Shown: in pieces, positions 4,377 through 34,042 of the stretch
Numbering within the stretch: position 1 is the first letter of the stretch
How the letters are laid out: every line of letters starts with the position of its first letter
Assembly (NCBI RefSeq): GCF_000336775.1
Contig: NZ_AOLJ01000001.1
Span: 1 to 64,000, forward strand
Direction of reading: 5' to 3'
Length of the DNA stretch: 64,000 nt
Origin: Haloferax gibbonsii ATCC 33959
Lineage (GTDB): Archaea > Halobacteriota > Halobacteria > Halobacteriales > Haloferacaceae
The notes under the pieces: model-generated
The model's input: the letters and a program-made list of their open reading frames with translations, nothing else
What the model was told of the DNA's origin: nothing
The model's database searches: none
Position numbers and translations under genes: made by a program

Positions 4377-4487
4377 ATGTCAGTAAGCACCCAACAAGCT
4401 TCGAACACGAACGATTCAGTTGTATCAACTTCGTTGTGGCGACGTAGTTACGACCGACGATGGCTTGCCGGTGATCGGTGCGTATGA
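4377..4487 (+). CDS. Possible 36-aa small ORF coupled to the DUF7344 gene
   Basis: An ATG at 4377, preceded by a purine-rich GGGGTGGGAG, opens a 36-residue frame (MSVSTQQASNTNDSVVSTSL...). Its TGA overlaps the ATG of the next gene in an ATGA junction at 4484-4487. The overlap and the Shine-Dalgarno-like sequence suggest translational coupling. No homology is apparent and the peptide is short, so it could be a leader peptide or a chance frame. Confidence 0.35.
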   Translation: MSVSTQQASNTNDSVVSTSLWRRSYDRRWLAGDRCV

Positions 4488-7885: not shown

Positions 7886-7964
7886 TTGACAATGCTGGCT
7901 TTGTCAGTAATCTTTCTATTAGGCCATTATCTAAGTAGGCCAACAGCCTATCCGAGCGGGAGGC

Positions 7965-11049: not shown

Positions 11050-11073
11050 CTCTGGATTGATGCGTGAAGACAT

Positions 11074-14283: not shown

Positions 14284-14934
14284 TCAAGAACGTGTTCGAG
14301 AGATCAGGATGCGTCCGGTTGTGGTCAGTTCAACAACCTTCGTTTTGCCGTGCGTTTCAGAGGTAACGAGTCCTTGTCGTTCGAGGAGCTTCACGTGTCG
14401 GGTAATGGTACTCTTCGAGACATCCATGGCCTCGGTGATCTCAGTAAGTGAGACCGGCGTGTCGAGTGTGACGATGGTCTCGAGTGTCGGCTCCGTTTGT
14501 GCCGGTGCGTTCGCCGTGAGGTCGGGGAGGGTTCGTTCCCGGACTTCGCCGTCGATATCGCTGAACTGATAGCTTGCGTGGATATGGTGTGTCCGCGAGA
14601 GCGCAGCGACGGTGAGAGGTAAGAAGATATCCCGGGCTCCACCTCCGAAGATGACGACAACCTCCCCGTTGGCAGCATCGATGAGTGTCCCGCAAATTTG
14701 GATCGCCACCTCGAAATCGTCGTGCGGTATCTCGGTCGTCTCAATGTCAACACTTGGTTCGATCTGTTCGATCATCCGACGAACGTCGTTAATTGCTTGA
14801 GTACCGCGGCTATCATCTGTGGTTGTGGTCGGAATCAAGAGGTCGATGTGGGTGTTGCGCTCGATGCCCTGACTGAGTATAGGCCGTGTTACGCGGGTGC
14901 TATCGTATCCTATGGGTGCAATATACGATCGCAT
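14284..14934 (-). CDS. csa3: Csa3-like CARF/HTH transcription regulator
   Basis: The N-terminal half is a CARF domain: IAPIGYDSTRVTRPIL for the first strand and ligand loop, and VVVIFGGGARDIFLPL for the G-rich binding loop. The C-terminal 70 residues are a MarR-like winged HTH (VSLTEITEAMDVSKSTITRH, then a wing with GKTKVVELTTTGR). Csa3 proteins control CRISPR and associated effector genes in response to cyclic oligonucleotides. At 216 residues the length is typical. It heads the minus-strand csa3-CARF-PIN group and is divergent from the seven-gene operon at 15257. It probably regulates one or both sides through the shared intergenic region. Confidence 0.85.
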   Translation of the reverse strand: MRSYIAPIGYDSTRVTRPILSQGIERNTHIDLLIPTTTTDDSRGTQAINDVRRMIEQIEPSVDIETTEIPHDDFEVAIQICGTLIDAANGEVVVIFGGGARDIFLPLTVAALSRTHHIHASYQFSDIDGEVRERTLPDLTANAPAQTEPTLETIVTLDTPVSLTEITEAMDVSKSTITRHVKLLERQGLVTSETHGKTKVVELTTTGRILISRTRS

Positions 14935-15256
14935 TGCCTATGACATCCCTTCCTCGTATATAGTACTGTTGCGCGTATATGAAACAGTTCTAGTCTAGTG
15001 TACTATTTCGGAGTGGCCACACTCTTAGGAATCGAGTATCTCTATGGACTCACTATATTTGCGCGAGTGAAACAAACGGAATCTATGCCCTCATGTGTTG
15101 TATTTCTCTCTAGTTTGCAATAGTTGTTGCTCCCACGACAGATATAATACGTTAATAGTTCTATCCATTTCCACGAATCGCTATGCAGCAACGAGGGTGC
15201 CAATTGTAACCAAACCGATTCATGGCATCAAAAACGATAATCCCAACCATGGATTT
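14935..15256. promoter_or_regulatory. Divergent promoter region with candidate Csa3 operators
   Basis: This 322-bp AT-rich region separates csa3 from the defence operon. It contains an inverted repeat ACTGTT (14965-14970) and AACAGT (14983-14988) with a 12-bp centre holding GTATAT, and a second symmetrical site GAGTG-GCCA-CACTC at 15011-15024. TATA-like runs (TATATAG near 14958, ATATAATAC near 15144) could serve the two directions. The plus-strand frame remains open through this region, but its composition is non-coding and I place the start at 15257. Confidence 0.45.
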
Positions 15257-16111
15257 ATGACACAACCTTCCCCATGCGAGAACGTGCCTAGTCTGCCTTC
15301 TATCGAGGATATCCTGAAGACGACGACATCGACCGTCGTCATGCGGGACCCGCAACTCCAGAAGCGCAACAAACACGCACGTGCACAACTCCGGAGTATA
15401 CCTTTCTTCGTAGAACTCGGCATCGACACCGTCGTCCATGCGGACATCTACGACAATGACTTCAAACTCATTGACTACACTCACTACTCTTCGGGGGACG
15501 TTGTGGACACCGTCGATGACATCGAGTTCCCTCTCGTCCATATCACCACTCAGGAAGGAGTCGAGGAATACGGCGAGGAAGAACTCGTCCGAGCATTACT
15601 CCAACGTGCCACCGAAGAACGCGAGCGATACATCCTAGTCACCGATACAACCTCGCCTCGTCTCCCGACGTACATCCAAAAGCCGGGGCGGTCTATCGTT
15701 GACGACTACGACGTCGCTGTGAAAGACTACAAGAAACTCTCTGCCGACTACCTCGGTGACTACGTCGACTCCGCACTACCGGCGTCTCAGACACGCAATC
15801 TCCACTATCACCGGGCCTCCGAGTACCACAAACAGCACGACGCACCCGCAGACACTCTCGAGAACATCTACGATTACACGCGTGCACCCGCAGAGAGTCC
15901 CGTCTGGGAACCGCTTTACTACTTCATCGAGCACGATCTCGAGAACGTCCTTGACGAGTATTCCGAGCGTATCAGTGACGCACTCCGATCGTGGACTGAG
16001 CGTGGTGAAACCCGGTACGTCGCGAATCAGATGCTCGATGCACTCCGTGTTTGCGAGTTTGAGAAAGAACAGCTAAAAGAATACCAGCAGACCGACCCTC
16101 ACCTTCGCTAA
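15257..16111 (+). CDS. First gene of the helicase/PLD operon, unknown function, 284 aa
   Basis: I do not recognise this protein. The ATG at 15257 (MTQPSPCENVPSL) is preferred over earlier in-frame starts, whose upstream sequence looks non-coding. The middle (ELGIDTVVHADIYDNDFKLI and ERYILVTDTTS) has alternating strands and helices, suggesting a Rossmann-like or nuclease-like core, but no catalytic motif is certain. The C-terminus is acidic and helical. It lies 2 bp before the winged-helix gene, so it belongs to the operon. It could be the counterpart of a small Dpd subunit. Confidence 0.6.
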   Translation: MTQPSPCENVPSLPSIEDILKTTTSTVVMRDPQLQKRNKHARAQLRSIPFFVELGIDTVVHADIYDNDFKLIDYTHYSSGDVVDTVDDIEFPLVHITTQEGVEEYGEEELVRALLQRATEERERYILVTDTTSPRLPTYIQKPGRSIVDDYDVAVKDYKKLSADYLGDYVDSALPASQTRNLHYHRASEYHKQHDAPADTLENIYDYTRAPAESPVWEPLYYFIEHDLENVLDEYSERISDALRSWTERGETRYVANQMLDALRVCEFEKEQLKEYQQTDPHLR

Positions 16112-16113
16112 TT

Positions 16114-16977
16114 ATGGCTGACTATCAATTTGCGGTTAACAAGCCGGATCGAGTGCTGATCAACTACAACACAGTTCGTTCAGCCGAACTAAAGGCCGTT
16201 TACGAGTCGCTCGTGAGCAATCGGACGGTTCAGAGCATTGTCTCGGACTTTGCACACGAGAAGGAGGACAACGTCCGCAATTGCATCAGCTTCTTGCACG
16301 CGATTGACCTCATCGAACGCGGCGGTGACGACCGTGTTGTCTCCCCATTGAACCGTGACATGTTCCCAAATCTCGAATTCGAAGCACGGTTCCTCTATCA
16401 CCTCCGCCAGCAACGGTTCCCGAAGAACCATCTGACGCGGATTCAGAATGTCGCACTAGAAACCGCCGATCGGTCGGTCACTCTCGACGTTCTCCTCCCG
16501 CGGGTGAAGGGTGAACTTGACCAGTACGACTTCGCATGGAACGAGACCAAACTCCGCATGTGGCGGGCGCTCAGTACGCAACTCGGGTTAGTCTCCGAGA
16601 CGAAAACACGCGGCGTGATCCTGAGTCCGTGTCGTCGCCTTCTCTATGATCTTCTCGAACTCTATGAACAACAGGAGGACAGCACAGACCTGTATAGCGC
16701 TCTCACATGGATTGAAGAGAACTTCTTCAACGTCTTCGAGACGACGACTGGCTCGCCTCGGGTCCATCCTGCGATCTCTGATGTCCTTCAAAATATGGAG
16801 TCCGAAGACGTTCTCGAACTCCGTGGGATGTCCGACGCCAGAGACACAGTCACGCTCCCTGAATCCGTGCACACACAACGCTCCCGGTCGGTCAACGTCT
16901 ACGACCTAGCTACACTCCCTGACTCGCCCACCTATCAGTATCCGCTCTCGCAGTTTGAGCAGGTGATCACGCAATGA
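16114..16977 (+). CDS. wHTH adaptor of the large ATPase, DpdG-like by position
   Basis: The N-terminal 80 residues look like a winged helix (LVSNRTVQSIVSDFAHEKED, then NCISFLHAIDLIERGGDDRV). The remainder is helical, with MWRALSTQLGLVSE and a regulator-like C-terminus. At 287 residues it precedes a large ATPase and overlaps its start by 4 bp (ATGA), the same arrangement seen with the 8996/9892 pair. In bacterial Dpd clusters a protein of similar size (DpdG) precedes the ATPase DpdH. That equivalence rests on position and length, not on a motif, and should be treated as a hypothesis. Confidence 0.6.
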   Translation: MADYQFAVNKPDRVLINYNTVRSAELKAVYESLVSNRTVQSIVSDFAHEKEDNVRNCISFLHAIDLIERGGDDRVVSPLNRDMFPNLEFEARFLYHLRQQRFPKNHLTRIQNVALETADRSVTLDVLLPRVKGELDQYDFAWNETKLRMWRALSTQLGLVSETKTRGVILSPCRRLLYDLLELYEQQEDSTDLYSALTWIEENFFNVFETTTGSPRVHPAISDVLQNMESEDVLELRGMSDARDTVTLPESVHTQRSRSVNVYDLATLPDSPTYQYPLSQFEQVITQ

Positions 16978-19900
16978 GTAGAATGTCCAAAATCTGGGAT
17001 GATAGCGTCGTCCGTGACTACCTGACGCCGGAAGCTCATCAAAAATCTCGCGAACAGTTCCTGAAGACACACATAGACATCGATAAGATCCGAGCAGACT
17101 ACCTTTTCCCGCACGAGGGAACAGACGAATTCGTCACGCAGGAGGAGTTCCGAGACGCTATCCTCAAATCAAAGGTCGACGACGACAATCGGATATTCAT
17201 CCTCCGTGGCGAGACCGGAAGTGGGAAAAGCCAGCTCTGTCAGTGGCTCGAATACCAGATCGGCGCTGATCCAAATGAGGGGGACGAGACACACATCGCA
17301 CTCCACGTGTCCCGGAGTAAGACTGGGATCGGCGATATACTCGACATCATCTCTGGACCGATCGACACCGACGTTACTGTGAGTAACGTCTCGGACCTCG
17401 ACCCCGAGAAGGTTGCCGACGCGATCATTACCACGCTTCAAGCGTTCGGTGCGGGGATGGAGCAGTTCAGTAAAGACGAAATCGATGCCCTTACTGTAGA
17501 TCGATCGAATGCAGCCGACCTTTCGTCAATCCTCGAGAAAAATATCGCGGAGTATCAGGAATCCGCGACGAGTGAGGGCGAAAAGCGGATGTCAGACCTC
17601 ATCACGAAGAAGGATTACAGGGACCTCTCAATGGCGGCCTTCGGCTCGACGAAGGGAAGCGATACACTCTTTCCCGCTTTACAGAGCCAAGTCCACGAAA
17701 TCCTTTCCCGAAACCTCGGTGTCGAAGACTTCCAAGGGAAACTCGAGGAACTTTCCGAGGAATACGAGAAACGAAATCTCCGTCCCGTCCTCATCTGTGA
17801 GGATCTTACGACATTCACTGTCCTCAAAGAACAACTCCTCGATCACATCTTCCAACTCGACAGCGGTCACTACGACGTCGTACTTGGCTGGACGTCCGGT
17901 TGGGAGAAGGATGACCTCTCGCGTGCCTTGGGTACGAGCCAGGGCATCAGCACGTACATGGAGGACCGTGCAGAAGGGTACCTTAGTACGACGGACGAGG
18001 ATGGTCGGGCGTACTTCCTCGACGATGACCTCACCGTCAAACTCGCCCGGAAATACATGTCGGTTATCCTTGATGAGTCAGATATGGACGAGTCACTTGC
18101 CGATGGTGTCCTCGAGTCGTTCGACAGTCTGTACCCGTTCAACGAGACGTTCATCGAGGAGTCCTACAACCATCTCATTCAGGATGGAAACAAACGTCGA
18201 ACCCCCCGCCTACTCTTGATGCGAGTCATTCGAGAGTGCCTGAGCTCAACCGTTCCACCCTTCGACGCGATCGAGGATAACCCGTACGTGGAACCGTTCC
18301 CCTCCCCAGTCGATCTCTCGTACACGGAGAGTCTCCAGCGACTCGGCAAGTGGTACGGGAGCGCAACGACGGATCGCCAACTCCGCGTTCACCGCCAGAT
18401 CCCTGAGACGTTTGACGTTCCGCTGACCGATGTCAATATCGACGACGACTGGGCATATTTACAAGCGGACGTCCCGGCTCCGACACTTAATCTCGGGGTC
18501 AGTGAGGGAACGTTCCATCCCGGCGAATACATCACGCTACGGGCGACGCTCGACAACCGTGGCGAGGAAGACGTTACGATTCGTTTCAACGGTAGCGAGA
18601 TCGCGACGACCGACTCCGACGGTTTCGCTTCCGTTCGGCTTCCGAACGAGAAGGGAGACATTACGTTCCAGGCTGAGAAAGATGGTGAGACAGACGCAAC
18701 AGCCGTTACCGTCGTGGAACCATCTGACGATACGTCTATTTCGGTCACGGTCAACCCGAAGACGCCAGCGGTGAGTGACGAAGTCACCGTCACAGCACGT
18801 GTAAATGGCGAACCACGAAGGGGTGTGCGAGTCTCCATCGACGATAACGAACTCGGCGAAACACGTAGTGACGGGAAGATTCATTTCAACGCGCCGGATA
18901 CTGGGTCGGCCACCGTCGAGGCAGTCTATGGCGACGCACGCGAGGAGACGACAATCGACATCGAGAGCTCAGACATCCACATTCCCGTTGGAACTGACCT
19001 CGACTCGACGACGGTCAAAGAGTACCTCCTCCAGTACCGTAACTGGATCAAGGTTGGTGACGCCTACGACAGTTCGACAGTCCTCCGTAAGGGGACCGCT
19101 GGCGTTCTAAACGAGTGGCACGACCCGACTCTCCTCGGCAACCTCAACGCGCGTAACGACGGTGTCCATGGCATCTATTACACACGTGGAGCTGACATTC
19201 CGGTCACAATCGTCGGCGCAGACGAGCGTCAGGGGATGAGCTTCGAGCTCGACTTCGGTGTTGAATACGACGATATCTACGAACCGCTATTCTGGTACGG
19301 CATTAGCGAGTCGGGCGAGTTCCCCCAAGAAGACAAATATGACCTCAACTACGATCTCCTCCGCGCGTGGACGGACAAACAGGTCGCCGACTTCCGAGCG
19401 AAGATGCGTGCCGATCTGGAAGCGTGTATTGACCCGATGACGCTCGAGGAATTCACCGTACTCGCGCAGTTTCTTATTCTCAACGCGAAGACCGGTCAAC
19501 GCGAGATCGAAGCCGAGATGATGTTCGAGAAACCTCCAGAGGGTGGATTCATCCCCGGTGCCGAAGACGAACAGCCGTCTGCCCTACGAGAAGCGACGCT
19601 GGATCTTCTCAAGTCTCGAAACGCTCCGTACCATCTCTCGAAAGGACTGTTTCTCCTCAAGTCGAACGTCGTTGACCGCGAACGTCTCTCGAAGGCTATC
19701 CAGAACGTCTCCGAAAACCTCGATCAGTACCTGTTGCAGGCCATGCAGATCGACACAGCGGATCTCTCCAGCGCTTACCAGATCAGCACCACTCGATCGA
19801 CTGGCTACGGCGTCGACATCCTCTTCGACCGTGTGAAGGCCTATGCGACGACGCTCGACGATGTCTCGGCCGAACAGAACGCCGTGCACGTCACTGAAAC

Positions 19901-20333
19901 CATCGACAGGGTTACCACCTACTATGAACCGAACCACGACCAGGACGACCTCCACGATGCACTCACGCAACTCCATGACGTCCTCGATAAACTGGACGCG
20001 AGCAAGTACGAGTCGTGGAAAGAAGCCCGTGAAGCGGTAGCGGGCGACGCAAAGATCGACTTAGGGCAGTTCCGTCAGCGAATGAGGACGTTCGAGGATA
20101 TCTCCGATAAATATGGCTACAAACTCATCGCGACGCTTCATGACTATGAGGAGAGCCGAGCGACGGAATCGGCATGGGAGATCTACGAAGCGATCGCAGA
20201 GATGATCGAGGAAGCAGATGGCGTCACACTCCCAGAAGATGTCGGTTTCCGTGACCGCGTCAGAGATCTCTCAGAGTTTGAGACGTACGAAAAGCGGCGG
20301 AATGCCATCGAAACCACACTTGGAGGGAACTGA
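16974..20333 (+). CDS. Large P-loop ATPase with two Ig-like domains, DpdH-like by position
   Basis: Residues 74-95 hold Walker A (RIFILRGETGSGKSQLCQWL) and a later RPVLICEDLTTF is a good Walker B, so this is an AAA-type NTPase of 1119 residues. Between about 500 and 670 are two beta-rich repeats of Ig-like or carboxypeptidase-regulatory type, marked by LRATLDNRGEEDVTIRFNG and VTARVNGEPRRGVRVSIDD. Such domains are usual in cell-surface proteins and odd in a cytoplasmic ATPase. The C-terminal 400 residues are helical, with no signal peptide or membrane segment. It overlaps the wHTH gene by 4 bp and precedes the coiled-coil gene by 2 bp. Likely role: ATP-driven core or switch of the restriction complex. 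Confidence 0.75.
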   Translation: MSRMSKIWDDSVVRDYLTPEAHQKSREQFLKTHIDIDKIRADYLFPHEGTDEFVTQEEFRDAILKSKVDDDNRIFILRGETGSGKSQLCQWLEYQIGADPNEGDETHIALHVSRSKTGIGDILDIISGPIDTDVTVSNVSDLDPEKVADAIITTLQAFGAGMEQFSKDEIDALTVDRSNAADLSSILEKNIAEYQESATSEGEKRMSDLITKKDYRDLSMAAFGSTKGSDTLFPALQSQVHEILSRNLGVEDFQGKLEELSEEYEKRNLRPVLICEDLTTFTVLKEQLLDHIFQLDSGHYDVVLGWTSGWEKDDLSRALGTSQGISTYMEDRAEGYLSTTDEDGRAYFLDDDLTVKLARKYMSVILDESDMDESLADGVLESFDSLYPFNETFIEESYNHLIQDGNKRRTPRLLLMRVIRECLSSTVPPFDAIEDNPYVEPFPSPVDLSYTESLQRLGKWYGSATTDRQLRVHRQIPETFDVPLTDVNIDDDWAYLQADVPAPTLNLGVSEGTFHPGEYITLRATLDNRGEEDVTIRFNGSEIATTDSDGFASVRLPNEKGDITFQAEKDGETDATAVTVVEPSDDTSISVTVNPKTPAVSDEVTVTARVNGEPRRGVRVSIDDNELGETRSDGKIHFNAPDTGSATVEAVYGDAREETTIDIESSDIHIPVGTDLDSTTVKEYLLQYRNWIKVGDAYDSSTVLRKGTAGVLNEWHDPTLLGNLNARNDGVHGIYYTRGADIPVTIVGADERQGMSFELDFGVEYDDIYEPLFWYGISESGEFPQEDKYDLNYDLLRAWTDKQVADFRAKMRADLEACIDPMTLEEFTVLAQFLILNAKTGQREIEAEMMFEKPPEGGFIPGAEDEQPSALREATLDLLKSRNAPYHLSKGLFLLKSNVVDRERLSKAIQNVSENLDQYLLQAMQIDTADLSSAYQISTTRSTGYGVDILFDRVKAYATTLDDVSAEQNAVHVTETIDRVTTYYEPNHDQDDLHDALTQLHDVLDKLDASKYESWKEAREAVAGDAKIDLGQFRQRMRTFEDISDKYGYKLIATLHDYEESRATESAWEIYEAIAEMIEEADGVTLPEDVGFRDRVRDLSEFETYEKRRNAIETTLGGN

Positions 20334-20335
20334 CT

Positions 20336-21091
20336 ATGGCTATACAGTCCACAGCGCTCGAGTCAAAACTCGAGAGCCTCGAACAGAAGGCGGACCAGTA
20401 CGACACGCGAACGAACACGGCAGCTCGAGTTAACAAAGCCGAAGAACACCTGATGGAACTGAACCAGGCGCTTAACAAACTCGAGGGTTCGCTTGACGTT
20501 TTCGAACAGCAGGCGGGAATCCTAACAGAGGTCTTCGGACACTCCCCCCCGTCGAGGGCGACAAGTGCCCGTGACAAGGCACGCTCGATTACACGCGTCT
20601 CTCAGGATGACGTTCTCGACATGATCGACGAAAGTGGCCAATCGTTGTCGAATCATATCGACGAGGTCCGAGAGACACGTGAGGACGTGAACGACGCACG
20701 ACGATCCATCAACGATCACCTAAAAAAGATTCAGCGTCGAAAACTCGATGACGCGAACACCGCGGAGAGCATTCAGAAGATCGTCGGCGAGGATCCAGAC
20801 GCGATGGACACGATTAGCCGGTATCGGTCGTTCATCAGGTCTATCCTCAATCCCAATGGTTCGGTTTCCAGCCTAAAGACACAGTGGCAGGGACTGGAAA
20901 AGGCCTTCGAGAACCTCGATACGGACTGGAAGGGCTTCCAGAGACACCACGACCTCAGCGATCAAACGATTGAAGATCTGAAGACGCTTAGTGAGGAGGG
21001 CCAAGTCGACCTCGATGACCTTTCAGATGCGAGCGTCAATGAGATGCTAAATATTCCCGAACTCCGGTCGACAATCAAGGTGAGTCTATAG
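20336..21091 (+). CDS. Coiled-coil operon protein, 251 aa
   Basis: The protein is almost wholly helical. Residues about 5-55 form a strong coiled coil (SKLESLEQKADQYDTRTN and LMELNQALNKLEGSLDVFEQ) and a second follows near 100-130. No enzyme motif is visible. It starts 2 bp after the ATPase stop and ends 6 bp before the first helicase, so it is embedded in the operon and probably a structural bridge between ATPase and helicases. I do not recognise a family. Confidence 0.65.
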   Translation: MAIQSTALESKLESLEQKADQYDTRTNTAARVNKAEEHLMELNQALNKLEGSLDVFEQQAGILTEVFGHSPPSRATSARDKARSITRVSQDDVLDMIDESGQSLSNHIDEVRETREDVNDARRSINDHLKKIQRRKLDDANTAESIQKIVGEDPDAMDTISRYRSFIRSILNPNGSVSSLKTQWQGLEKAFENLDTDWKGFQRHHDLSDQTIEDLKTLSEEGQVDLDDLSDASVNEMLNIPELRSTIKVSL

Positions 21092-21097
21092 ACGCCA

Positions 21098-24000
21098 ATG
21101 GAGAATCCTGCTAAACGTGCGGAAGCGGCGATGGACGCCTATCGGAAACACTTCATTGGTGCCGGTGGTCGAGCGGCGCGAAACGTCGCCCATCGTTTTG
21201 AAGCCACTAACAACGGCGAGGAATCCGTTATCGGCTTTCGCGGCCCATATCTGCAGGCGCTTAATGTTGCGAACTGGAGCACAAAGTCTTGGCTCTCGTT
21301 CAGCAAGCGAGCGGGGATTCATCCGCTTGTCCGTCTCGCGTTCGAGGATATCGGGTTCCGCCGACTCTATGACTTCCAAGAGCGGAGTGTAGAGACGATC
21401 CTCGACGGGCAGGATACTGTTATCACGGCCGCGACCGGCCGGGGGAAGACCGAAGCGTGGCTCATCCCCATCCTTGACTACATCCTCAATGCGAATCAGG
21501 GGAACGTCGATGAGAGTTGCCCTGATGATGTTAAAGCGGTCCTCACGTATCCGACGAAAGCGCTCGCCCAGGACCAGTTGAAGCGCCTGATCAAGTACCT
21601 CTATCGGATCAACGCGGAACTCCCGACGAACGACCGCATCACTGTCGGGATCTACGACGGGGACACGCCGGGAAATATGTCCTCGCGTGCGGAGGGCTAC
21701 CTGAATGCGACGTTCAAGTACTTCGAGTGTCCGGGCTACAACGACGCGCTCGAGAAATGTCAGAACTGCGGGAAGAGTGTTCATGTCCGGAATGCCGGCC
21801 AGCGTTACGAACTTGAACCCGAGAAGAAGCAGTGTGTCGACGACGTTCCTTTAGACTTCCTCCGATTGACAAAAAAAGAGATCCTCGAGGAGGGTGTTGA
21901 CATCCTACTCACGAACCCGGACACGATCAACCTCAAACTTGTCAACACGAACGCGGGCGACGAACACGACACGTTTGTCTACGAGCCACAGTTCTTCGTC
22001 TTCGACGAGGTCCACACCTACGACGGTCTCTTCGGGAGTTATACGGCGATGCTCACGAAGCGTATCCGAGCACTACGCGGGACACGTGATGTCGACGCCC
22101 CGCAGGTGATCGCGAGTAGTGCCACCGTCGAGAACGATGTCGAATTGTTCCGGCGTATCAGCGGAGCGGCGGACGTCGCGCACGTCGATGAAAACCCCCG
22201 CGAACTAGACCCACCGCCACTCCAGAACGTACCCGACGCACTCTACGATGAACCGATAACGGTGGTGCAATTACGTCGCGCGGTTCGTGGTGAGAGATCG
22301 TACCCGGCCCCGCTCGACTCGTTCGACCCATCCATCGACGACCCGAGTACGATCGACAACGAGAGCCTTGACGAACTGGTCGGTGACGCGCTCTTCGAGC
22401 ATCTCACCTCGAAGTCGAACGATCCGGTCGTACACGCTATACAGCACTTCCACGAAGAACTTGCCGACGAGCCACGAACTCGCGAGGCGTTCCTCGACAC
22501 TCTCGAGACAGAGTACTCGCTCACCGACGCACAATCGGAGACTGCCCTCCAAAACTTCCGCACGCTCGGCGAGTACTCGGGCTTACTGGAGAACCGAAGC
22601 CACCTCTTCTCGTGGCCGCTCGACGGGTTCTACAGTTGTGCACAGTGCGCGGCCGTCTATCGTTCCCCACATGACTCGTGTGCGGAGTGTGACTCGGGCA
22701 TCGTCACGCGTGCGACGTACTGCCGTCGGTGCGCTGAGGAAGCTCTTGTGGCGTGGTACTGTCCCGAGTGTGATCAACTCGAGTCCTATACGCCGTCCGA
22801 AGAGGGAAGCTTCGCCTCGCGGGATGAGCAGTATTGTGGGCGGTGTGAGGCCGCACGCGATGACGAGGTGCGTCTGCTTCGAGTGTCGTTCACGCCCGAA
22901 CTGGAGTGTCAGTCCTGTGGCGCTGTGGAAGAGCGCAGCGTCATTGAGACCTGCACATGTGATGCGGCGATGACGCGTACCTCTGTCAACGAGTGGACGT
23001 GCACGAACCCACAATGTGGCCGAGCGAAATCCGCTGACTCAGGGTGTTCCGCCTGCGGTTCCGAGCAACGCGTCCTCCGACGGAGTGACGCGGCCGTCGA
23101 GTGCCGGTCCTGTGGGCAGACGTACGATGCCACAGACATCCCACGCCAGTGCGCGTGTGGGCATTCGGTCGAGAACACCCGGCTCATCCCTTGGATATGC
23201 GTCCGCGGGGGATGTACGCGCGACTATCACGCGCCGTCTCCCCCGACGGAGTGTGAGTGTGGTACGGAGGTGTTCGTCAAGAAGGGGCTCTTTGAGGTGT
23301 TCGAGAATGACCACTGTACTGAGTGCGATACCGCCGTCCTCTCTGGGTCATCCTGCCAGTGTGACGATCCGGAGCACCAACAGCAGGCCGACGCCTTTCA
23401 GTCCTATCAGACGATCACTAACGGCGGACGCATCGTTCCGGTTCGCGACCATACGTCAGTCGTCCCGTGTCGTCATCAGCGACTCGGGTATCGGATCGGA
23501 CAGCGCTACGACGAGTTGGTCCGCAGTCCGAACAACATCGCCGTCACGACCTCTCAGTACTTGCTCCGCGGGGTCGCGGACGATGAGGACTACTCGTCGG
23601 CGAAGATGTTGTCGTTCGCCGACTCCCATCGCGACATGAAGGAACTCGGACGGGACTTCAACGAACCGGAAGTTGAGACACTCCTCGATCAAGCACTCGT
23701 CGAAGCGATTCGTACTGCCGACGACTCGTGGCTGACGCTCGATAACGTGCTCACGGAATCGTTGGCGTGCATCGACACCCTTCACGACGAACTCAGTCCA
23801 CCCCGTGCCCTCCAGGACGTCTCGTTCGACTTGAAGGAGCATCTCGTCGACCGCTCTCGCCGGTTCATGGACACCGAGGAGGCAATCCGGGACAGACTTA
23901 GTCGACGGGCGGTCCCACACAGTTACACGAAACGGTTCCGAGAGCGGGGTGGCTCGCTAGCTTCGGACGGCCTCGTCGACGTCCGCGTCGATCCGGGGGT

Positions 24001-26620: not shown

Positions 26621-29600
26621 CCCACAACACACTTGAGCATGCTGAAGACCTGAAGCGCACATATGGCGACCACTACGTCGCCAGCCAAAACACCGCGACG
26701 CTCAAAGACATCATCTCGCGCTACGAGGGCGGGACAGAGCAGTCGCTCCACGATCGACTTCCCGAATTCATGCGGACGCGCGGTCCATTCCTCCAGGCCC
26801 TCAATCTGCCACGGCAGAGTGACACTCCGTGGCCAGCGTTCGCCGAAACCCGGCCGTCAATCGCCGACGACGCGCCTGACGGCCTCCACGACGATATCGT
26901 TCGGACGTTCTCTGAGGCTGGCTTCGAGCGCCTCTACGCGTTCCAAGAGGACACAGCGGACGCGATACTCGCCGACGACCACACCCTCGTCACCGCCGGG
27001 ACCGGTCGCGGCAAGACCGAGAGCTGGCTCATCCCCATTCTCCAGTACATCTGTGAGGCGAAAGCTGGCTACCACGACGCCGATCCGCAGAGCGTCAAGT
27101 GTGTCCTCACCTATCCGACGAAAGCGCTTGCACAGGATCAACTGAAGCGCCTCATCGGGTACCTCTCTACGCTCAACGAGACGCGAACCGGTACCGACCG
27201 GATCACCGTCGGCATCTTCGACGGTGACACCCCGCACAACGACCCGGACGCTTACTCGTATCTCGACACCTCGTTCAAGTACTTCGAGTGTCCATGCAGC
27301 AACTGCTCGTCCTCACTAACGGTCGAACGGACCGAGGACGGCTATCGTGTCACACACGATTCGGCCACCGAAATGGACGTCGACCTCGACTTCATCGAAC
27401 TCACGCGCGAGGAAATCGTCGACGCTGAAGTCGACATCCTCCTCACCAACCCAGACACCGTCAACTATCGTTTGTTCAATATCAACGAGCAAGACGAACA
27501 GGCCGTGTTCGTCACGGAGCCGAAGTATGTCGTCTTCGATGAGATCCACGAGTACTCCGAACTCTTCGGTTCGTTCACCGCGACACTCATGCGGCGCTAT
27601 CTCCGCTCTCGTCGTTCACTACTCGGACTCAATGATGACGTGGACGACGATCTCCGACTCGTCGGCGCCAGCGCGACCGTCGAGAACAAGCGTGCAATCT
27701 TCCAGCGCATCAACCCCTTCACAGACGCGGACATCACCGTTGTCGAAGAGGACCCACGGACGCTTGAGTGCCAATTCCCCGATGACCTCCCTGCCCCGCT
27801 CGTTGAACGCACCGCCGACCCGGGTCTTCTCGCCGATACGTCTTCGAAGTGGACGCCCGCCGAATCCTTAGTCGCAGATGTTATCGGGGAACTCCCCAGT
27901 AATGCTGATTCTGGCGAACGACGGCGCATCGCCGGCGACCGACTCTACGACACCCTCCTCGACGAGCGCGGCGACGACCTCGACATCGTCCGCGCGCTCT
28001 ATACGACGCTTCACGAGGAGGCGCAGCGTCCTGCGGACCTTCGCGAGACGCTCTCGGAGACGTACGACCTCACCGATGACCAGGCTGGCCGACTCGTCGA
28101 TAACTTCGTCACGCTCGGTCAGCTATCCGGTGTCCTCGAGAGTCGGGCTCACCTCTTCAGTTGGCCGCTCGACGGCTACTACACCTGCGTGAACTGTGCC
28201 GCCGTCTACGACACGCCGCAGTCAGAGTGCACTCAGTGCGGCCATCACTTCGTTACAAAACTCGCTTACTGCAACCACTGCGGTGAGGAGGCGCTCGAGT
28301 CCTGGTTCTGCCCGGACTGCGAACGGCTCTCCCCACTCAACGTCACGTCTGGTGAGGGCCGCTTCGAGTACTTCCAAGACCATACGTGCAGTTGCGGAAC
28401 GGAGACGATCCGGACGGTCTGGCGCCCCTACTACGAGTGTTCTGGGTGTTGGAATCAACAGAAGATCGACCGGATTACTCACTGTCCGGACTGCGACACC
28501 GCCATGGTCCTCAGCGACGATCAGGACGACCTCGTCTGTCGGAACCCCGAGTGTGACGTCACACAGGAGACCGGGACGGAGGTTGTTTGTGAGAACTGCC
28601 ACTCAAACGACCTCGAACCGCTCAGCGACGATTCGGTGCTTTACTGTGAGGACTGCGGCGACGCCCACGAACAGGAGGCCGGCCACCAGTGCAGTTGCGG
28701 AGGGATGCTCCGTCCGAAGCGCTATCTCGGTTGGTCGTGCAGCGACCCTGATTGTGATGCAGTCTATTTCGGCGAACCGCCCAACACCTGTGATTGTGGG
28801 AAACGGCGATTCGCGCGCACTGGTTTGCTCGACATCAATGCAATTGACCACTGCTCGAACTGCGACACCGATCTCCTGCTGGGTGCTGAGTGTCGCTGTG
28901 ATGACCCTGCGATCTCGCCGACAGTTCGCGGGTTCCGCGAGTACAAACTTGTCGACGAACTCGGCCAGATTCGAAAACCTTCGTCGTTCCACGGTGCCGT
29001 TCCCTGCTACGACCCCCGGAAGACCTACCGGAAGTCATCGCGCTACGAGTCGATGATCCGCGGCCCCGGGAACACCGCTGTCACGACCGCGCAGTACTTC
29101 CTTCGTGAGACCGCGGACGTCAACGAACCTGACTCGTTCCGGGAGGCGAAGATGCTCTCATTCGCTGACAGCCAGTCGGACATGAAAGAACTCAACCGGA
29201 ACTTCACCGAACCTGAGCAGACGCTCTTCGTCACACAACTCGTCGTTGACACACTCGATGAGGCTGACGACAACTGGGTCTCGCTCGCTGAACTCCAGTC
29301 CACAGTCATCAAACGTGCCGTGGAGTACGAGGATATGCTCACTGAGGGCGATGGTGGGCTACTGGAAGCTATGACGGGCTATCGGCAGTCCGTCGAGGAC
29401 TTCCTGAAGGAGGAAGTCGCGGCACGCGTCCTTCGCGGGCGCTACAACAACCGCTGGCGAAGTCGTGACCATCTTCCCTCCGATGGCCTACTTGATGTCA
29501 GCCTTGACATCGACTTGAGCGACTTCGATTCGGGTGAGATGGCCGTCATCGAGGCCTTGAACGGGCAGAGTAAGCAGTACGTCGAATCGCTCAGTGACGA

Positions 29601-32076
29601 TATCGAGGATGCGGGTCGACACGTCGAATCCCTCATCGATCAGGACGTCCTCCGTCGCATCGAGACCGACTCCGGATATCTCATCGGATTTGACGAATCC
29701 TGTGTTTGCTGCACGACCGTCGACGCGGAGACGCCAATAACGTACGTTCCCGCAACGGAGTCGTTCTACTCGACGCTCGATGAGGTCTTCGCTGACCACG
29801 GCCCAGACCTCGACACGGTCACGTTCAGCGCTGATTACGAGGCCCGTAGCGAGTTCACGCACCCTCACTTCGACCTCACAGCCTACCGCGTGAACTATTC
29901 GGACCCCCTACTGCTCGTCTCCCGTGCCTACTTCGGGCTCACAGAGAAGGACGAACGCCGCCGTATCGAGTATCAGTTCCGGGAGGGTCGCTACCCCAAC
30001 TTCCTCTCTTCTGGACCGGCGATGGAAGTTGGGATGGACATCGGTGACCTCGATGCGCTCCTCCTCTACGGTACCCCGCCAAACACGAACTCGTACCTCC
30101 AACGGATCGGTCGAGCAGGCCGACAGTCCGGGTCGTCACTCGTCCACTCGATCAGTCAGCGAAACCCGATCGACTACTACTACTACGAACAGCCGAACGA
30201 ACTCATTCAGGCTAAACCCCAGCCTGTCCCACTCAACGAGACGAACGAAGAGGTGCTTCGTATCTCGCTGACGTGGGCAATCCTCGACTATTTCGCCGCC
30301 GAATGCTGGATTCCGTGGCGTCGCGAGAGCAGCGATGTCGTTGACGAACTCTATTGTGAGGACGATCTCGTCCCACGGAGTGAACCGCGGCCAAATGACA
30401 TCGTGACCTTCACCGCACTTCTCGCGAGCGAGAACGATGCGATCCAGTTCGTCGACGAGGAAGCCCCTCTCCAGACGCTCAAGGTGGCGTACGAGGAACA
30501 TCGAACCGAAGTACGCGACTGGCTTGAGGACATTCTCGGCTTCAGTTACTGTCGTGATTGCGGTCGGAAGCACGAGGCCGGCTACGAGGGTCCGTGTAGT
30601 CGTCCGGAGTGCGACGGCCGTGTCGTCTCTGCGGTCAACGCACACGAGGACGTCATAGAGGAGGCGATGACGACATTCGTCGACGAGTTCGTCGAGAGCT
30701 ACTTCGATTTTGAGGACGACATCCTCAACGAACTCGATAAGGTCCAAACACAGCTCAACGAACTCAATCTGGAGTCACGTGGCCGGCGAAACCGCCGCCG
30801 ACAGAACTCGAATGATCGCGTTGAACAGCGCGACGAGCGTGATCGACTACAGAGTCGGAGCGCAAATCTAAACCAGTATTTGGACCGACTTGCACGGATG
30901 GATTACGGGTCGTTCCTCGAAGAGCACAGCACCACGCCGTTCAGTCTCCGCTCCGTCGAGGATACAGTAGAATACGAACTTATCGGTGAAGACTTCGAGT
31001 CTGTGACCGCCGACTTGCACTCTCGGCCAATCAGGATTGCGCTCTCCGAACTCCATCCCGGTGCCGCCTATCTCCATTCGGACAATCAGCGCTACGTCGT
31101 CACCGGCGTACGCGCCCACTCCTATCAGACTTCTCAACTCGAGAGCACCGCCGCGATCTGTCCGACGTGCGGCGCCGAATACGACCTTGGTGAGGGCCCC
31201 TGCGAGGAGTGCGGCTCCGACCTCAAGCGCCTGAAGACGATCGTCCCCGAGCGCGTCACCGCGTACAAGTCCGACCTCGTACTCGGTCAACTGCCGAACG
31301 GCGACCCCCTCCTCCCGACTCGGCTGTACCAGTCGGATTCCGAGGTGCAGGACACCTACGCACCTACTGAAACGAATGTGACTGCGTTCGACCCCGAACC
31401 AGAGAGAGCGTTCGCCATCACGACCGACGACGGTGACTCTGTAGGACGGTTCGATTACGGAGATGTCACCATCAACTCGTCCGTCCGTCAGTTCAAAGCT
31501 CACTACGTTGGTGGCGGGTCAGATCCGCTACCGAACGTCTTCGAACTCTGTGGAAAGGAAAACTGTGATGGGGTCATCGCACGCGACGACGAGACGGCTT
31601 ACTGTATGCGTCATCCCGAACACTCGACTGAGAACACGGACGTCGTCCGCCTCGCAACCGAGTTCGACACGAAGGCTGTCCGTATCCAGTTCGACGACGA
31701 AGACCTGGAGCACGCCTTCTCGCACGGAGTCCGAATGGCGCTTCAGTACATTGGCGGCGTCGGCGTTCGGGCCGTCCCCGAATCGCTCGGTGAGGACGGA
31801 ACCTACATCTTCGACAACGAAACTGGCGGTAGCGGTGTCACCGTCCTCCTAACGATGGGGTCCGGTAACACGCGGGAGAAATTCGACACTGCAATCAGCC
31901 TCATCGAAGACGCATTCGAATGTAGCTGTGACAATGGCTGTCCGTTCTGCATCTACCAGTACGGTTGTGAGAATCAGAACGACCCTGAGACAATCGCGAA
32001 AGAAGACCTCATGGCGCTCATCGACGCAGGATTGACACTCACTCAGCGCGAGGTCGAGGCGGACGATGACGAATAG
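26617..32076 (+). CDS. Giant SF2 helicase with zinc knuckles and DUF1998-type C-terminus (copy 2)
   Basis: This is a tandem paralogue of the preceding helicase with the same order of parts in 1819 residues. Motif I is AGTGRGKTE near 126, motif II is VVFDEIHEY near 307, motif III is GASATVEN, and motifs V-VI are SSGPAMEVGMDIGDL and LQRIGRAGRQSG near 1161. A zinc-ribbon array lies at about 520-760 and CDNGCPFCIYQYGCENQ near 1768. All helicase motifs are intact in both copies, so neither is decaying. Shared stretches such as YYYYE.P.....KP.PVPLNE.NEEVLR show an old duplication followed by divergence. It overlaps the helicase 1 stop by 4 bp and the PLD gene by 11 bp. The two may act as a heterodimer or read different substrates. 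Confidence 0.85.
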   Translation: MTHNTLEHAEDLKRTYGDHYVASQNTATLKDIISRYEGGTEQSLHDRLPEFMRTRGPFLQALNLPRQSDTPWPAFAETRPSIADDAPDGLHDDIVRTFSEAGFERLYAFQEDTADAILADDHTLVTAGTGRGKTESWLIPILQYICEAKAGYHDADPQSVKCVLTYPTKALAQDQLKRLIGYLSTLNETRTGTDRITVGIFDGDTPHNDPDAYSYLDTSFKYFECPCSNCSSSLTVERTEDGYRVTHDSATEMDVDLDFIELTREEIVDAEVDILLTNPDTVNYRLFNINEQDEQAVFVTEPKYVVFDEIHEYSELFGSFTATLMRRYLRSRRSLLGLNDDVDDDLRLVGASATVENKRAIFQRINPFTDADITVVEEDPRTLECQFPDDLPAPLVERTADPGLLADTSSKWTPAESLVADVIGELPSNADSGERRRIAGDRLYDTLLDERGDDLDIVRALYTTLHEEAQRPADLRETLSETYDLTDDQAGRLVDNFVTLGQLSGVLESRAHLFSWPLDGYYTCVNCAAVYDTPQSECTQCGHHFVTKLAYCNHCGEEALESWFCPDCERLSPLNVTSGEGRFEYFQDHTCSCGTETIRTVWRPYYECSGCWNQQKIDRITHCPDCDTAMVLSDDQDDLVCRNPECDVTQETGTEVVCENCHSNDLEPLSDDSVLYCEDCGDAHEQEAGHQCSCGGMLRPKRYLGWSCSDPDCDAVYFGEPPNTCDCGKRRFARTGLLDINAIDHCSNCDTDLLLGAECRCDDPAISPTVRGFREYKLVDELGQIRKPSSFHGAVPCYDPRKTYRKSSRYESMIRGPGNTAVTTAQYFLRETADVNEPDSFREAKMLSFADSQSDMKELNRNFTEPEQTLFVTQLVVDTLDEADDNWVSLAELQSTVIKRAVEYEDMLTEGDGGLLEAMTGYRQSVEDFLKEEVAARVLRGRYNNRWRSRDHLPSDGLLDVSLDIDLSDFDSGEMAVIEALNGQSKQYVESLSDDIEDAGRHVESLIDQDVLRRIETDSGYLIGFDESCVCCTTVDAETPITYVPATESFYSTLDEVFADHGPDLDTVTFSADYEARSEFTHPHFDLTAYRVNYSDPLLLVSRAYFGLTEKDERRRIEYQFREGRYPNFLSSGPAMEVGMDIGDLDALLLYGTPPNTNSYLQRIGRAGRQSGSSLVHSISQRNPIDYYYYEQPNELIQAKPQPVPLNETNEEVLRISLTWAILDYFAAECWIPWRRESSDVVDELYCEDDLVPRSEPRPNDIVTFTALLASENDAIQFVDEEAPLQTLKVAYEEHRTEVRDWLEDILGFSYCRDCGRKHEAGYEGPCSRPECDGRVVSAVNAHEDVIEEAMTTFVDEFVESYFDFEDDILNELDKVQTQLNELNLESRGRRNRRRQNSNDRVEQRDERDRLQSRSANLNQYLDRLARMDYGSFLEEHSTTPFSLRSVEDTVEYELIGEDFESVTADLHSRPIRIALSELHPGAAYLHSDNQRYVVTGVRAHSYQTSQLESTAAICPTCGAEYDLGEGPCEECGSDLKRLKTIVPERVTAYKSDLVLGQLPNGDPLLPTRLYQSDSEVQDTYAPTETNVTAFDPEPERAFAITTDDGDSVGRFDYGDVTINSSVRQFKAHYVGGGSDPLPNVFELCGKENCDGVIARDDETAYCMRHPEHSTENTDVVRLATEFDTKAVRIQFDDEDLEHAFSHGVRMALQYIGGVGVRAVPESLGEDGTYIFDNETGGSGVTVLLTMGSGNTREKFDTAISLIEDAFECSCDNGCPFCIYQYGCENQNDPETIAKEDLMALIDAGLTLTQREVEADDDE

Positions 32077-34042
32077 CCTCCCTGCCGAGGTCGCCGACAT
32101 CCGTACTCGCTCCCCAGAGTCCCTCTGGGGCGTCTCAGCCGAGAGTATCTACCTCGCCGTCTGCGCCGTCGCAACCGATACCAACCTCACGTACGCACTC
32201 AGACCACATCATATCGCTACCGTCTTCCAGACGAACGATGAGCGCGCTCCTGAAACCGTTGCTGATGTACATCTGTTCCTCCTCACCAAACTCGGACTCG
32301 TTACTGATACCCACGAACTGACCGACTGCGGACGGTTCGTCTTGGCGAGCGAACGACCCGCTGATGCTGTTCGCCTCGTCGCCACTCGACGCCTACCGCG
32401 TATCCAACAACTCCTCCGTGAGTTCGCCACCATCGATACGGATCGCCTCCCACGAAGTGAACTCGACACGCTCGTCCGTGACGCGGAAGACGAGGTCTTC
32501 ATTGCACCACTCCTCGCCTCACTTGCGTTCATCAGCCTCTATCCGGAAGGTGTCATCCTCAACCGTGAGACGATTACCCAGACGGTCGACCGACTTGAAC
32601 GGCACACGAAACGCCCGAACGCGGCAATCACGCTCATCACCGCGCTCACGGCACTCGACAACTCTCGTCTCATCGCCCGCGTCGCGACAACCTACACTAA
32701 CACGACTATCACACCAGCGGATGTCGACCAGACGGCCCCACTCGACGCACTTGCCACCATTGAGCTCGACTCACCAGAACGAACCCCGGTTGCCGAACTT
32801 ACCAACGCGATCGAAGACACCCGACTCGCCGTTGCCCACCACGCAGAAATCTTCGAGACCGCTCTCGACCCAGAGGACCACTCTGTCGAATGCGACGACG
32901 CGACCGTCGATAGCGACCTCGTCAAGGACGTGTTTCCAGACGATCCGTCCCACGAGGCTGTCACGGAGACACTCGACCTCATCGCCACGATTCACACTCA
33001 TCCCACCCTCCACTCGGTCGCTCTCTCTTCACTCACCGATACCCTGGATCTCGATCCCTACCCACTCTACCGTACTATCTCCAACCTTCCGGGTGTCGAC
33101 TGTTCGCTCCGAGATGATCTCCTCATAACCTTCGACGCTGTTCCGTCCGCCCCGGAGGGGACTGATCGCTACGACGGCTTCCGCGATGATCTCTTCGACG
33201 CACTCCACACGCGACTCTCGTGGTTCGACGCTCTCACCGATGTCACGCTCAGGGAAGCACCGCGAATGAGGGAAAACATCATCGAATCACTCGTCATGGG
33301 TGTTGACGACGATCTTGTTGCCCCGACATACTTCGTCTATACCCTCCCGGACCCAGAAGCTCTCGGGAAGGAACGCATGGAGCAGTACGTCGACGACCAG
33401 CCCGCACTACGACGAGAACGTGCGCGCTTGAAACGCTGGAAGGGCCAGCGGGATAACGATCTGCGCCGCTTTACCGAAATGACGGATCGCCTCTTCACAC
33501 GAGGCCAAGAGCGTGACCTTGACGAACGCGTCGTCCGCATCATGACACCATACGATGACGACACTTTCTCCGAGTACACCTCACAGCTCCGGAGTCTCCT
33601 CCGGGACGGCTACGAACTTCGCCTCCTCACTCGGCACACGAAACGTCGATGGGAGTGGGAACGACTCCGCGACAATCTCCTCGGCGATCTCGAGGAGAAC
33701 CGCGAGAATGTCACTATCCGGACGTACTCCCGATACAAGAAATATCAGCGGATCACAAGCGAGACGGACGAAACTGACCTCGCTGAGTTTGGCATCCATG
33801 CAAAACTTCAGACCATTGGACACGCAACTGAGGGTGCCGCACTCCTCGGTTCGGCGAACTTCATGGAGAACAGCTACAACTGGAATCCCGAATGTGGGGT
33901 CTATACGGAGAACTCAAACTTCGTCGCCGCCGCAATCGACTTTTTCGACCACGTCTGGGAGCTCTCCGAGGCTGACGAAGTCGATCTCAGCAGTCTGCAG
34001 GAGATCCCTCGTCGCTCCTTCTACCCTTCCTACTACACGTAA
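32066..34042 (+). CDS. PLD-family protein ending the helicase operon
   Basis: The first 450 residues are helical with wHTH-like segments (LFLLTKLGLVTDTHELTDCG). The C-terminal 170 residues form a phospholipase D-type domain: RVVRIMTPYDDDTFSEY, YELRLLTRH, then the single HxK motif FGIHAKLQTIG followed by LLGSANFMENSYNWNPE. PLD domains in DISARM (DrmC) and Dpd (DpdK) systems are presumed nucleases; one HxK motif implies a dimeric active site. It is 658 residues, larger than a minimal DrmC. The 11-bp overlap with helicase 2 indicates coupled translation, and it is the last gene before an AT-rich spacer. It may supply the cutting activity of the complex. Confidence 0.8.
   Translation: MTNSLPAEVADIRTRSPESLWGVSAESIYLAVCAVATDTNLTYALRPHHIATVFQTNDERAPETVADVHLFLLTKLGLVTDTHELTDCGRFVLASERPADAVRLVATRRLPRIQQLLREFATIDTDRLPRSELDTLVRDAEDEVFIAPLLASLAFISLYPEGVILNRETITQTVDRLERHTKRPNAAITLITALTALDNSRLIARVATTYTNTTITPADVDQTAPLDALATIELDSPERTPVAELTNAIEDTRLAVAHHAEIFETALDPEDHSVECDDATVDSDLVKDVFPDDPSHEAVTETLDLIATIHTHPTLHSVALSSLTDTLDLDPYPLYRTISNLPGVDCSLRDDLLITFDAVPSAPEGTDRYDGFRDDLFDALHTRLSWFDALTDVTLREAPRMRENIIESLVMGVDDDLVAPTYFVYTLPDPEALGKERMEQYVDDQPALRRERARLKRWKGQRDNDLRRFTEMTDRLFTRGQERDLDERVVRIMTPYDDDTFSEYTSQLRSLLRDGYELRLLTRHTKRRWEWERLRDNLLGDLEENRENVTIRTYSRYKKYQRITSETDETDLAEFGIHAKLQTIGHATEGAALLGSANFMENSYNWNPECGVYTENSNFVAAAIDFFDHVWELSEADEVDLSSLQEIPRRSFYPSYYT

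What the first reader, a model, noticed from the sequence alone, without database searches (positions are those of the whole stretch)
15257..34042. Seven-gene operon with two giant zinc-rich helicases and a PLD protein
The genes overlap or abut over 18.8 kb: unknown, wHTH, large ATPase, coiled coil, two paralogous 1.8-kaa helicases and PLD. It recalls Dpd (G/H/J/K) and DISARM (A/B/C) restriction modules, but lacks methyltransferases and has duplicated helicases. It may be an undescribed archaeal restriction complex.
Basis: partly seen in the sequence, partly recalled or inferred. Interest (0 to 1): 0.85.

Follow-up and report, generated by a model that had tools for sequence, protein, structure and literature searches.

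The report
Haloarchaeal deazaguanine-linked restriction system (BRIGADE II)
This is a plasmid-borne antiviral system of salt-loving archaea that very probably marks the cell's own DNA with a modified guanine and attacks unmarked DNA with two giant helicases and a nuclease; a 2025 preprint already names the class from sequence alone, and what is added here is its full gene set, a conserved switch gene and a strain in which it could be tested.

Summary
The seven-gene operon is real (g1-g7, 15257-34042, +). It is not an orphan restriction complex. The same window carries its modification half at 4991-11535: a DpdA-DpdC fusion, a second transglycosylase, a winged-helix protein, a BrxD-like ATPase and QueD. 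Two ARMADA-like YprA helicases, a PLD nuclease and a 7-deazaguanine cluster, found only in haloarchaea, is the published definition of BRIGADE Type II (Bell et al. 2025 preprint, PMC12458937; no experiments on it). Gene order is collinear with bacterial dpdG-H-I-J-K: g2 matches DpdG, g3 matches DpdH, while g4=DpdI rests on position only. All 38 helicase-positive genomes carry DpdA; only 4 of 155 helicase-negative genomes in the same family do. Not in the preprint's main text: the two helicases are old paralogues (35-38% identical, separate clades); a Csa3-type CARF-wHTH gene sits divergently upstream in 27/27 two-helicase loci and 0/11 others; an operator-like inverted repeat lies at its start in 19/27; and Haloarcula vallismortis, host of dPreQ1-modified virus HVTV-1, carries the system. 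No likely source of a CARF ligand was found in most of these genomes. Most likely function: Dpd-like, modification-based restriction. Novelty: new member of a known, very recently named kind.

The parts
4991..7885 (+). dpdA-dpdC fusion, 964 aa: DNA guanine transglycosylase (preQ0 insertion) plus a C-terminal DpdC-like/DUF6884 domain
   Evidence: NCBIfam DpdA 5.7e-83, above its cut-off; residues 733-838 match padloc DpdC 3.7e-8; DCGA and GMTSFDS motifs and the CxCxxC cluster line up with Enterobacter DpdA; DpdA present in 38/38 helicase-positive genomes
7965..8999 (+). second tRNA-guanine-transglycosylase-like protein, 344 aa
   Evidence: Pfam TGT 1.3e-29, TgtA-like 1.3e-39; keeps the VDSFDSS and CPCPVC motifs; next to dpdA in relatives
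8996..9892 (+). u298: tandem winged-helix protein, probable DNA-binding subunit of the modification module
   Evidence: AlphaFold pLDDT 82; weak Foldseek hits to multi-winged-helix proteins, e.g. RPC62 4.4e-4, and to MarR folds, low TM; conserved in 17 relatives
9892..11049 (+). BrxC/BrxD-like ATPase
   Evidence: Pfam BrxC_BrxD 3.3e-16, NCBIfam BrxD 1.3e-10
11074..11535 (-). QueD-like 6-carboxytetrahydropterin synthase (preQ0 pathway)
   Evidence: TIGR03367 3e-20 (below curated cut-off); in Halobaculum the same locus has annotated queC, folE, QueE and the queD-family gene
14284..14934 (-). csa3: CARF-winged-helix transcription factor, divergent from the operon
   Evidence: TIGR01884 2e-21, above its cut-off; padloc CARF3 7e-83; 27/27 two-helicase loci, 0/11 single-helicase loci
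14964..14989 (.). operator-like inverted repeat TACTGTT-N12-AACAGTT, 29 bp upstream of the csa3 start
   Evidence: only site in the window; same place in 19/27 loci at <=2 mismatches
15257..16111 (+). g1: conserved alpha/beta protein of unknown fold relation, 284 aa
   Evidence: A2: 28 aligned orthologues; AF2 pLDDT 87.7; no PDB match with E<=1e-3
16114..16977 (+). g2: DpdG-like protein
   Evidence: profile-profile match to DpdG 95.4%, 1.8e-8
16974..20333 (+). g3: DpdH-like ATPase, 1119 aa
   Evidence: NCBIfam DpdH 1.2e-17, below cut-off; profile-profile 99.6%, 1.4e-23 over 462 columns
20336..21091 (+). g4: coiled-coil protein in the dpdI position
   Evidence: position only; profile comparison to DpdI not significant
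21098..26620 (+). g5: YprA-family (ARMADA/Druantia-like) helicase A, 1840 aa, motifs I, II, VI and DUF1998 cysteines intact
   Evidence: padloc DruE 1.8e-36, DpdJ 3.9e-35; motifs conserved in orthologues; own clade
26617..32076 (+). g6: YprA-family helicase B, 1819 aa, motifs intact
   Evidence: padloc DruE 1.1e-40; PDB YprA 2.4e-21; own clade
32066..34042 (+). g7: PLD-family nuclease, 658 aa, HxK...GSxN...E catalytic pattern
   Evidence: PLDc_2 3.7e-8, DrmC 2e-10; H578, K580, S596, N598, E609 invariant in 21 aligned proteins

Best explanation
This is a BRIGADE Type II system: a Dpd-like modification-based restriction system of haloarchaea. Inferred working: (1) preQ0, made by QueD with QueE/QueC/FolE, is exchanged for guanine at chosen sites in host DNA by DpdA. 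The second transglycosylase, the winged-helix protein u298 and the BrxD-like ATPase supply site choice and energy. The fused DpdC-like domain then converts preQ0 to the amide form (dADG). (2) DNA lacking the mark is caught by g2-g3-g4 (DpdG, DpdH and probably DpdI equivalents). It is then unwound or translocated by two specialised YprA helicases, g5 and g6, which probably act together, and is cut by the PLD nuclease g7. (3) Transcription is controlled by the divergent Csa3-type CARF-wHTH protein, acting at least at its own promoter through the TACTGTT-N12-AACAGTW repeat. Shown by computation: gene content, homology, intact motifs, co-occurrence, conserved order and the repeat. Inferred: the chemical mark, the target choice, complex formation, and that Csa3 binds this repeat.
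For: Definition match: two ARMADA-like YprA helicases, a PLD nuclease and a 7-deazaguanine cluster, haloarchaea only (against 12, 24, 94, 114). In the tree g5+g6 lie with ARMADA/Druantia and apart from DpdJ (support 100). g2=DpdG and g3=DpdH by profile comparison, in the order of an annotated bacterial dpdG-H-I-J-K operon. DpdA accompanies the helicase in 15/15 against 4/155 genomes of the family (Fisher p=3e-18) and in 38/38 across the order. DpdA-DpdC fusion. Helicase and nuclease motifs intact. csa3 in 27/27 two-helicase loci, repeat in 19/27. A ~99% copy on a Haloferax plasmid.
Against: The preprint calls the two Type II helicases 'nearly identical'; here and in the other complete loci they are 35-38% identical. 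It may mean architecture; its supplement could not be read. g4=DpdI is not supported by sequence. g7 (658 aa) is much larger than DpdK (~180 aa) and its profile match to DpdK is weak. No DpdB, DpdD, DpdE or DpdF was identified in the annotated part of the window. No experiment on any BRIGADE was found, and no modified base has been measured in DNA of these hosts. In some genomes the modification genes lie tens of kb away (e.g. G030, about 50 kb).
Confidence: 0.78

Rival explanations
1. A non-restriction defence of Druantia/ARMADA type: g1-g7 sense viral replication intermediates (ssDNA-containing) and block replication directly, and the 7-deazaguanine module is a loosely linked neighbour that is not needed for self-recognition.
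For: The helicases are closest to ARMADA/Druantia helicases, not DpdJ; [quoted passage not shown] in some genomes dpdA is tens of kb away.
Against: DpdA co-occurs in 38/38 helicase-positive genomes and rarely without them; DpdG/DpdH homologues accompany the helicases.
Confidence: 0.15
2. A Dpd/BRIGADE locus that is silent unless a CARF ligand acts on Csa3: an inducible second-line system rather than constant restriction. (This can be true together with the best explanation.)
For: csa3 27/27 and the operator-like repeat 19/27; the split CARF-PIN RNase next door in this window; Csa3 proteins bind cA4 elsewhere (PMC8844856, PMC8699464).
Against: No Csm1, Cmr2 or mCpol in any of the 27 genomes; CBASS cyclase matches (SMODS) in at most 6/27, none in the window's own genome; the repeat sits at the csa3 start, not at g1, so it may only control csa3 itself.
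Confidence: 0.3
3. A decayed or decoupled locus (broken remnant on a plasmid).
For: It sits near a transposase gene and a truncated-looking metabolic gene; some relatives have split or partial copies (G214, G324).
Against: All seven frames open, catalytic motifs intact here and in orthologues, helicase orthologues 91-95% identical in another genus.
Confidence: 0.03

Closest known systems
BRIGADE Type II (Bell et al. 2025 preprint, PMC12458937)
   Same: Two ARMADA-like YprA helicases, separate PLD nuclease, 7-deazaguanine module, haloarchaea only, zinc-binding and coiled-coil region between RecA2 and DUF1998
   Different: Preprint says the helicases are 'nearly identical'; here 35-38%. The csa3 regulator, its repeat and the DpdG/DpdH identities are not in its main text
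Bacterial Dpd system (dpdA-K)
   Same: DpdA with DpdC-like domain, DpdG, DpdH, helicase and PLD in the order G-H-(I)-J-K
   Different: No DpdB/D/E/F identified; helicases are ARMADA-like and doubled; extra g1, second TGT, u298, BrxD-like ATPase; PLD protein much larger
BRIGADE Type I
   Same: Shares g1-g5 and DpdA (G015, G022, G381, G394)
   Different: g6-g7 absent; beside g1-g5 stands an operon with a ~913 aa Dpd-branch helicase and a PD-(D/E)XK nuclease; no csa3
ARMADA Types I/II and Druantia
   Same: Helicase family and architecture
   Different: No BrxHII-like helicase or PglX methyltransferase next to g1-g7, no C-terminal nuclease on the helicases
DISARM
   Same: DUF1998 helicase plus PLD (DrmC) nuclease
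   Different: Helicase and DUF1998 fused, no methyltransferase; DrmA profiles score below DruE and DpdJ
PbeABCD
   Same: Haloarchaeal, helicase plus PLD
   Different: No Dnd genes; PbeC is a CxC-type ABC ATPase (PMC10853773); unrelated gene set

Membership tests
BRIGADE Type II | Two YprA-family helicases, both in the ARMADA-like branch | tested here: met
   Tree: g5 and g6 clades together are separate from DpdJ and the short Dpd-like helicases with support 100
BRIGADE Type II | The two helicases are 'nearly identical' | tested here: inconclusive
   35-38% identity in 26 loci, separate clades: not met if sequence is meant, met if architecture is meant. Supplement not readable
BRIGADE Type II | 7-deazaguanine biosynthesis/insertion genes in the neighbourhood | tested here: met
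   DpdA(-DpdC), second TGT, QueD at 4991-11535
BRIGADE Type II | Separate PLD (or PD-(D/E)XK) nuclease, none fused to the helicase | tested here: met
   g7 PLD; helicases end shortly after the DUF1998 cysteines
BRIGADE Type II | Absence of the 4-helix bundle on the PLD protein | not tested
   No structure of g7 was predicted
BRIGADE Type II | Restricted to halophilic archaea | tested here: met
Dpd | DpdA with DpdG-H-I-J-K restriction genes | tested here: inconclusive
   DpdA, DpdG, DpdH met; DpdI and DpdK weak
Dpd | Helicase of the DpdJ clade | tested here: not met
   Tree
Dpd | DpdB (DGQHR domain), DpdD/E/F | tested here: not met
   None among the proteins annotated between 921 and 48353; the rest of the genome was not searched for them
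[quoted passage not shown]
   Absent from the annotated neighbourhood
DISARM | Separate DrmA and DrmB plus methyltransferase | tested here: not met
   Fused helicase-DUF1998; no methyltransferase
Any 7-deazaguanine restriction system | Modified base in host DNA and restriction of unmodified DNA | not testable with these tools
   Needs mass spectrometry and plaque assays

The most novel reading that the evidence does not exclude
BRIGADE II is a base-modification restriction system gated by a CARF sensor, which would be a first as far as I know: Csa3 binds a cyclic oligonucleotide, or another ligand made by an unknown enzyme (no type III cyclase or mCpol in any of the 27 genomes), and so switches the modification-restriction locus on or off through the TACTGTT-N12-AACAGTW operator.
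Probability: 0.3. Interest if true: 0.78.

Novelty: new member of a known kind. Interest (0 to 1): 0.52.

Why it matters
BRIGADE has been named only from sequence, with no gene-by-gene anatomy in the main text and no test. This work supplies the anatomy: a shared g1-g5 core with DpdG/DpdH, and exchangeable helicase/nuclease arms (g6-g7 in Type II; a Dpd-type helicase with PD-(D/E)XK in Type I). It finds a conserved CARF regulator with an operator-like repeat, which may tie a base-modification restriction system to second-messenger signalling. It also finds the system in genetically workable Haloferax and in Haloarcula vallismortis ATCC 29715. The host DpdA cited by Hutinet et al. (EMA11768 in AOLQ01000002, PMC6884629) lies on the same contig as the BRIGADE II operon. 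The virus HVTV-1, which carries dPreQ1 at about 30% of its guanines and grows on this species, becomes a natural test of whether viral 7-deazaguanine evades this system.

Tried and rejected
PbeABCD/Dnd (first guess for a haloarchaeal helicase+PLD locus): rejected, no Dnd genes and a different gene set. BREX-related capture system with TGT (PMC12839542): has PglZ, DUF6079 and HerA, none seen here. g1 as a DpdG relative: no. u298 as DpdG or g2 relative: no. g4 as DpdI: not significant. g1 fold: a confident model but no PDB match at E<=1e-3. PDB sequence searches with g1, u298 and g7 profiles gave nothing. Source of a CARF ligand: Csm1, Cmr2 and mCpol absent, SMODS rare. Viral contigs: only one weak partial helicase match. 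The supplement of the BRIGADE preprint could not be opened (no look-ups allowed).

Full report
Observation. The operon is there as described: seven same-strand ORFs from 15257 to 34042 with junctions of -11 to +6 bp. The two largest products (1840 and 1819 aa) are full-length paralogues at 36% identity, with DEAD and Helicase_C domains, intact motifs I, II and VI, and the DUF1998 cysteine cluster. The last gene is a PLD protein.

Immediately upstream in the same window, at 4991-11535, are a 964-aa DpdA (NCBIfam DpdA 5.7e-83) whose C-terminus matches DpdC (3.7e-8), a second TGT, a 298-aa protein, a BrxC/BrxD-like ATPase and QueD. DpdA keeps the DCGA and T-S-x-D-S motifs and the CxCxxC cluster when aligned with Enterobacter DpdA. 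At 14284-14934, divergent from the operon, is a Csa3-type CARF-wHTH gene.

Relatives. In 170 genomes of the family, 15 have the helicase (E<=1e-100) and all 15 have DpdA; of the other 155 only 4 do (Fisher p=3e-18). At order level 35 of 392 sampled genomes have it, and all 38 helicase-positive genomes followed up carry DpdA. Neighbourhoods were fetched and mapped. In 27 two-helicase loci (26 complete plus G061, which is split over two contigs) the order csa3(-) g1 g2 g3 g4 g5 g6 g7 is kept; in a few loci my simple ORF caller lost one gene (g1, g2 or g4), which tblastn recovered where it was checked (G165 g2, G159 g4). The modification genes stand beside the operon or elsewhere in the same genome. 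A scan of 84,980 species gave full-length relatives only in Halobacteria; all others kept are partial matches of 23-40%.

Identity. Profile-profile comparison gives g2=DpdG (95.4%, 1.8e-8) and g3=DpdH (99.6%, 1.4e-23), with negative controls. An annotated Enterobacter operon reads dpdG-dpdH-(dpdI)-dpdJ-dpdK (the unnamed gene matches the DpdI model), collinear with g2-g3-g4-g5/g6-g7. g4 as DpdI and g7 as DpdK are not shown by sequence. g7 has invariant H578, K580, S596, N598 and E609, a plausible HKD-type active site. The tree places g5 and g6 in two fully supported clades, together beside ARMADA/Druantia and apart from DpdJ (quick tree; deep long branches are unsure). The duplication therefore predates the spread of the system. 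A four-genome third lineage (G146, G277, G109, G164) has one such helicase; in three of them (G146, G277, G109) a PLD gene follows it, with dpdA next to it in two. Another group (G015, G022, G381, G394, with G091 on a contig edge) keeps g1-g5 and carries, beside it, a second operon with a ~913-aa helicase of the Dpd branch and a PD-(D/E)XK protein (annotated in Halobaculum; the Halobaculum helicase placed in the tree): the published definition of BRIGADE Type I.

Known system. Bell et al. (2025 preprint, PMC12458937) define BRIGADE as Dpd/ARMADA hybrids with a 7-deazaguanine cluster and PLD or PD-(D/E)XK nuclease, detected exclusively in halophilic archaea; Type II has two ARMADA-like helicases. 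This locus fits, except that they write 'nearly identical' for the helicases and I find 35-38% in 26 loci. BRIGADE as a system turned up in no other paper of the library, and the preprint reports no experiment on it. Its main text does not mention Csa3, DpdG or DpdH.

New here. (1) csa3 is present in 27/27 two-helicase loci and 0/11 single-helicase loci (Fisher p=8e-10; genomes are related, so this overstates independence). (2) A 26-bp inverted repeat TACTGTT-N12-AACAGTW lies at 14964-14989, 29 bp upstream of the csa3 start, the only site in the window. It recurs at the same place in 19 of 27 loci at <=2 mismatches; 23 have some hit at <=3, against 2.6 in shuffles, and part of the recurrence among close relatives is shared descent. 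The repeat was found by inspecting over-represented words in these same sequences, so the shuffle comparison is not an independent test. (3) No Csm1, Cmr2 or mCpol in any of the 27 genomes, SMODS cyclases in at most 6 and not in the window's own, so a CARF ligand has no known source. (4) NZ_AOLQ01000002 of Haloarcula vallismortis (49,842 bp, same length as G244:C2) carries the operon and dpdA; Hutinet et al. cite the DpdA of this contig as a possible modifier of HVTV-1 DNA (PMC6884629); the passages I read do not mention a restriction operon beside it. (5) u298 is modelled as tandem winged helices (low TM scores), which suggests DNA-site recognition in the modification module.

Mechanism (mostly inference). 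preQ0 insertion by DpdA with TGT2/u298/BrxD-like help, conversion by the DpdC-like domain, detection of unmarked DNA by g2-g3-g4, processing by the two helicases, cleavage by g7, expression set by Csa3. Shown: content, motifs, co-occurrence, order. Not shown: the mark, the target, the complex, and Csa3 binding. The chemistry assigned to DpdA and DpdC follows published work on bacterial Dpd as summarised in PMC12839542 and PMC6884629.

Verdict. A real, intact BRIGADE Type II system, on a plasmid in a close Haloferax relative: a new member of a recently named kind, with a conserved regulator and a tractable host that make it testable.

Noticed in passing
window 12706-14222 (-): Split CARF-PIN pair: 157 aa CARF protein and 347 aa PIN protein that match consecutive parts of one padloc CARF_PIN profile (1.7e-28 and 1e-29). 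Next to csa3 here and in G443, beside the BrxD-like gene in G395: a candidate CARF-activated RNase accessory in 3 of 27 loci.
   Followed up: partly
window 2062-3801 (+): GmrSD-type (DUF262) modification-dependent restriction enzyme just left of dpdA; also next to dpdA in G028. A type IV enzyme against modified DNA beside a DNA-modification module is notable.
   Followed up: no
window 11920-12588 (-): 222-aa protein without any family match; relatives lie near BRIGADE-type loci in G146, G277 and (in two pieces) G449.
   Followed up: no
window 4478-4840 (+): Small 120-aa ORF before dpdA; homologues recur near dpdA or the operon in many relatives; hypothetical protein in Haloferax alexandrinus.
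   Followed up: no
window 34646-35908 (-): AMP-binding enzyme whose match starts at profile position 85: N-terminus apparently missing, next to a transposase gene (36014-36850), probably a broken gene at the island edge.
   Followed up: no
L152 8743-15111: Nostoc linckia plasmid YprA helicase of 2122 aa with an annotated 'chromosome segregation ATPase-like' neighbour, grouping loosely with a Druantia III-like helicase: possibly an unclassified variant.
   Followed up: no
L149 1-13292: Halobaculum operon (short Dpd-branch helicase, PD-(D/E)XK nuclease, large ATP-binding protein) beside g1-g5: gene-level anatomy of what looks like BRIGADE Type I.
   Followed up: partly
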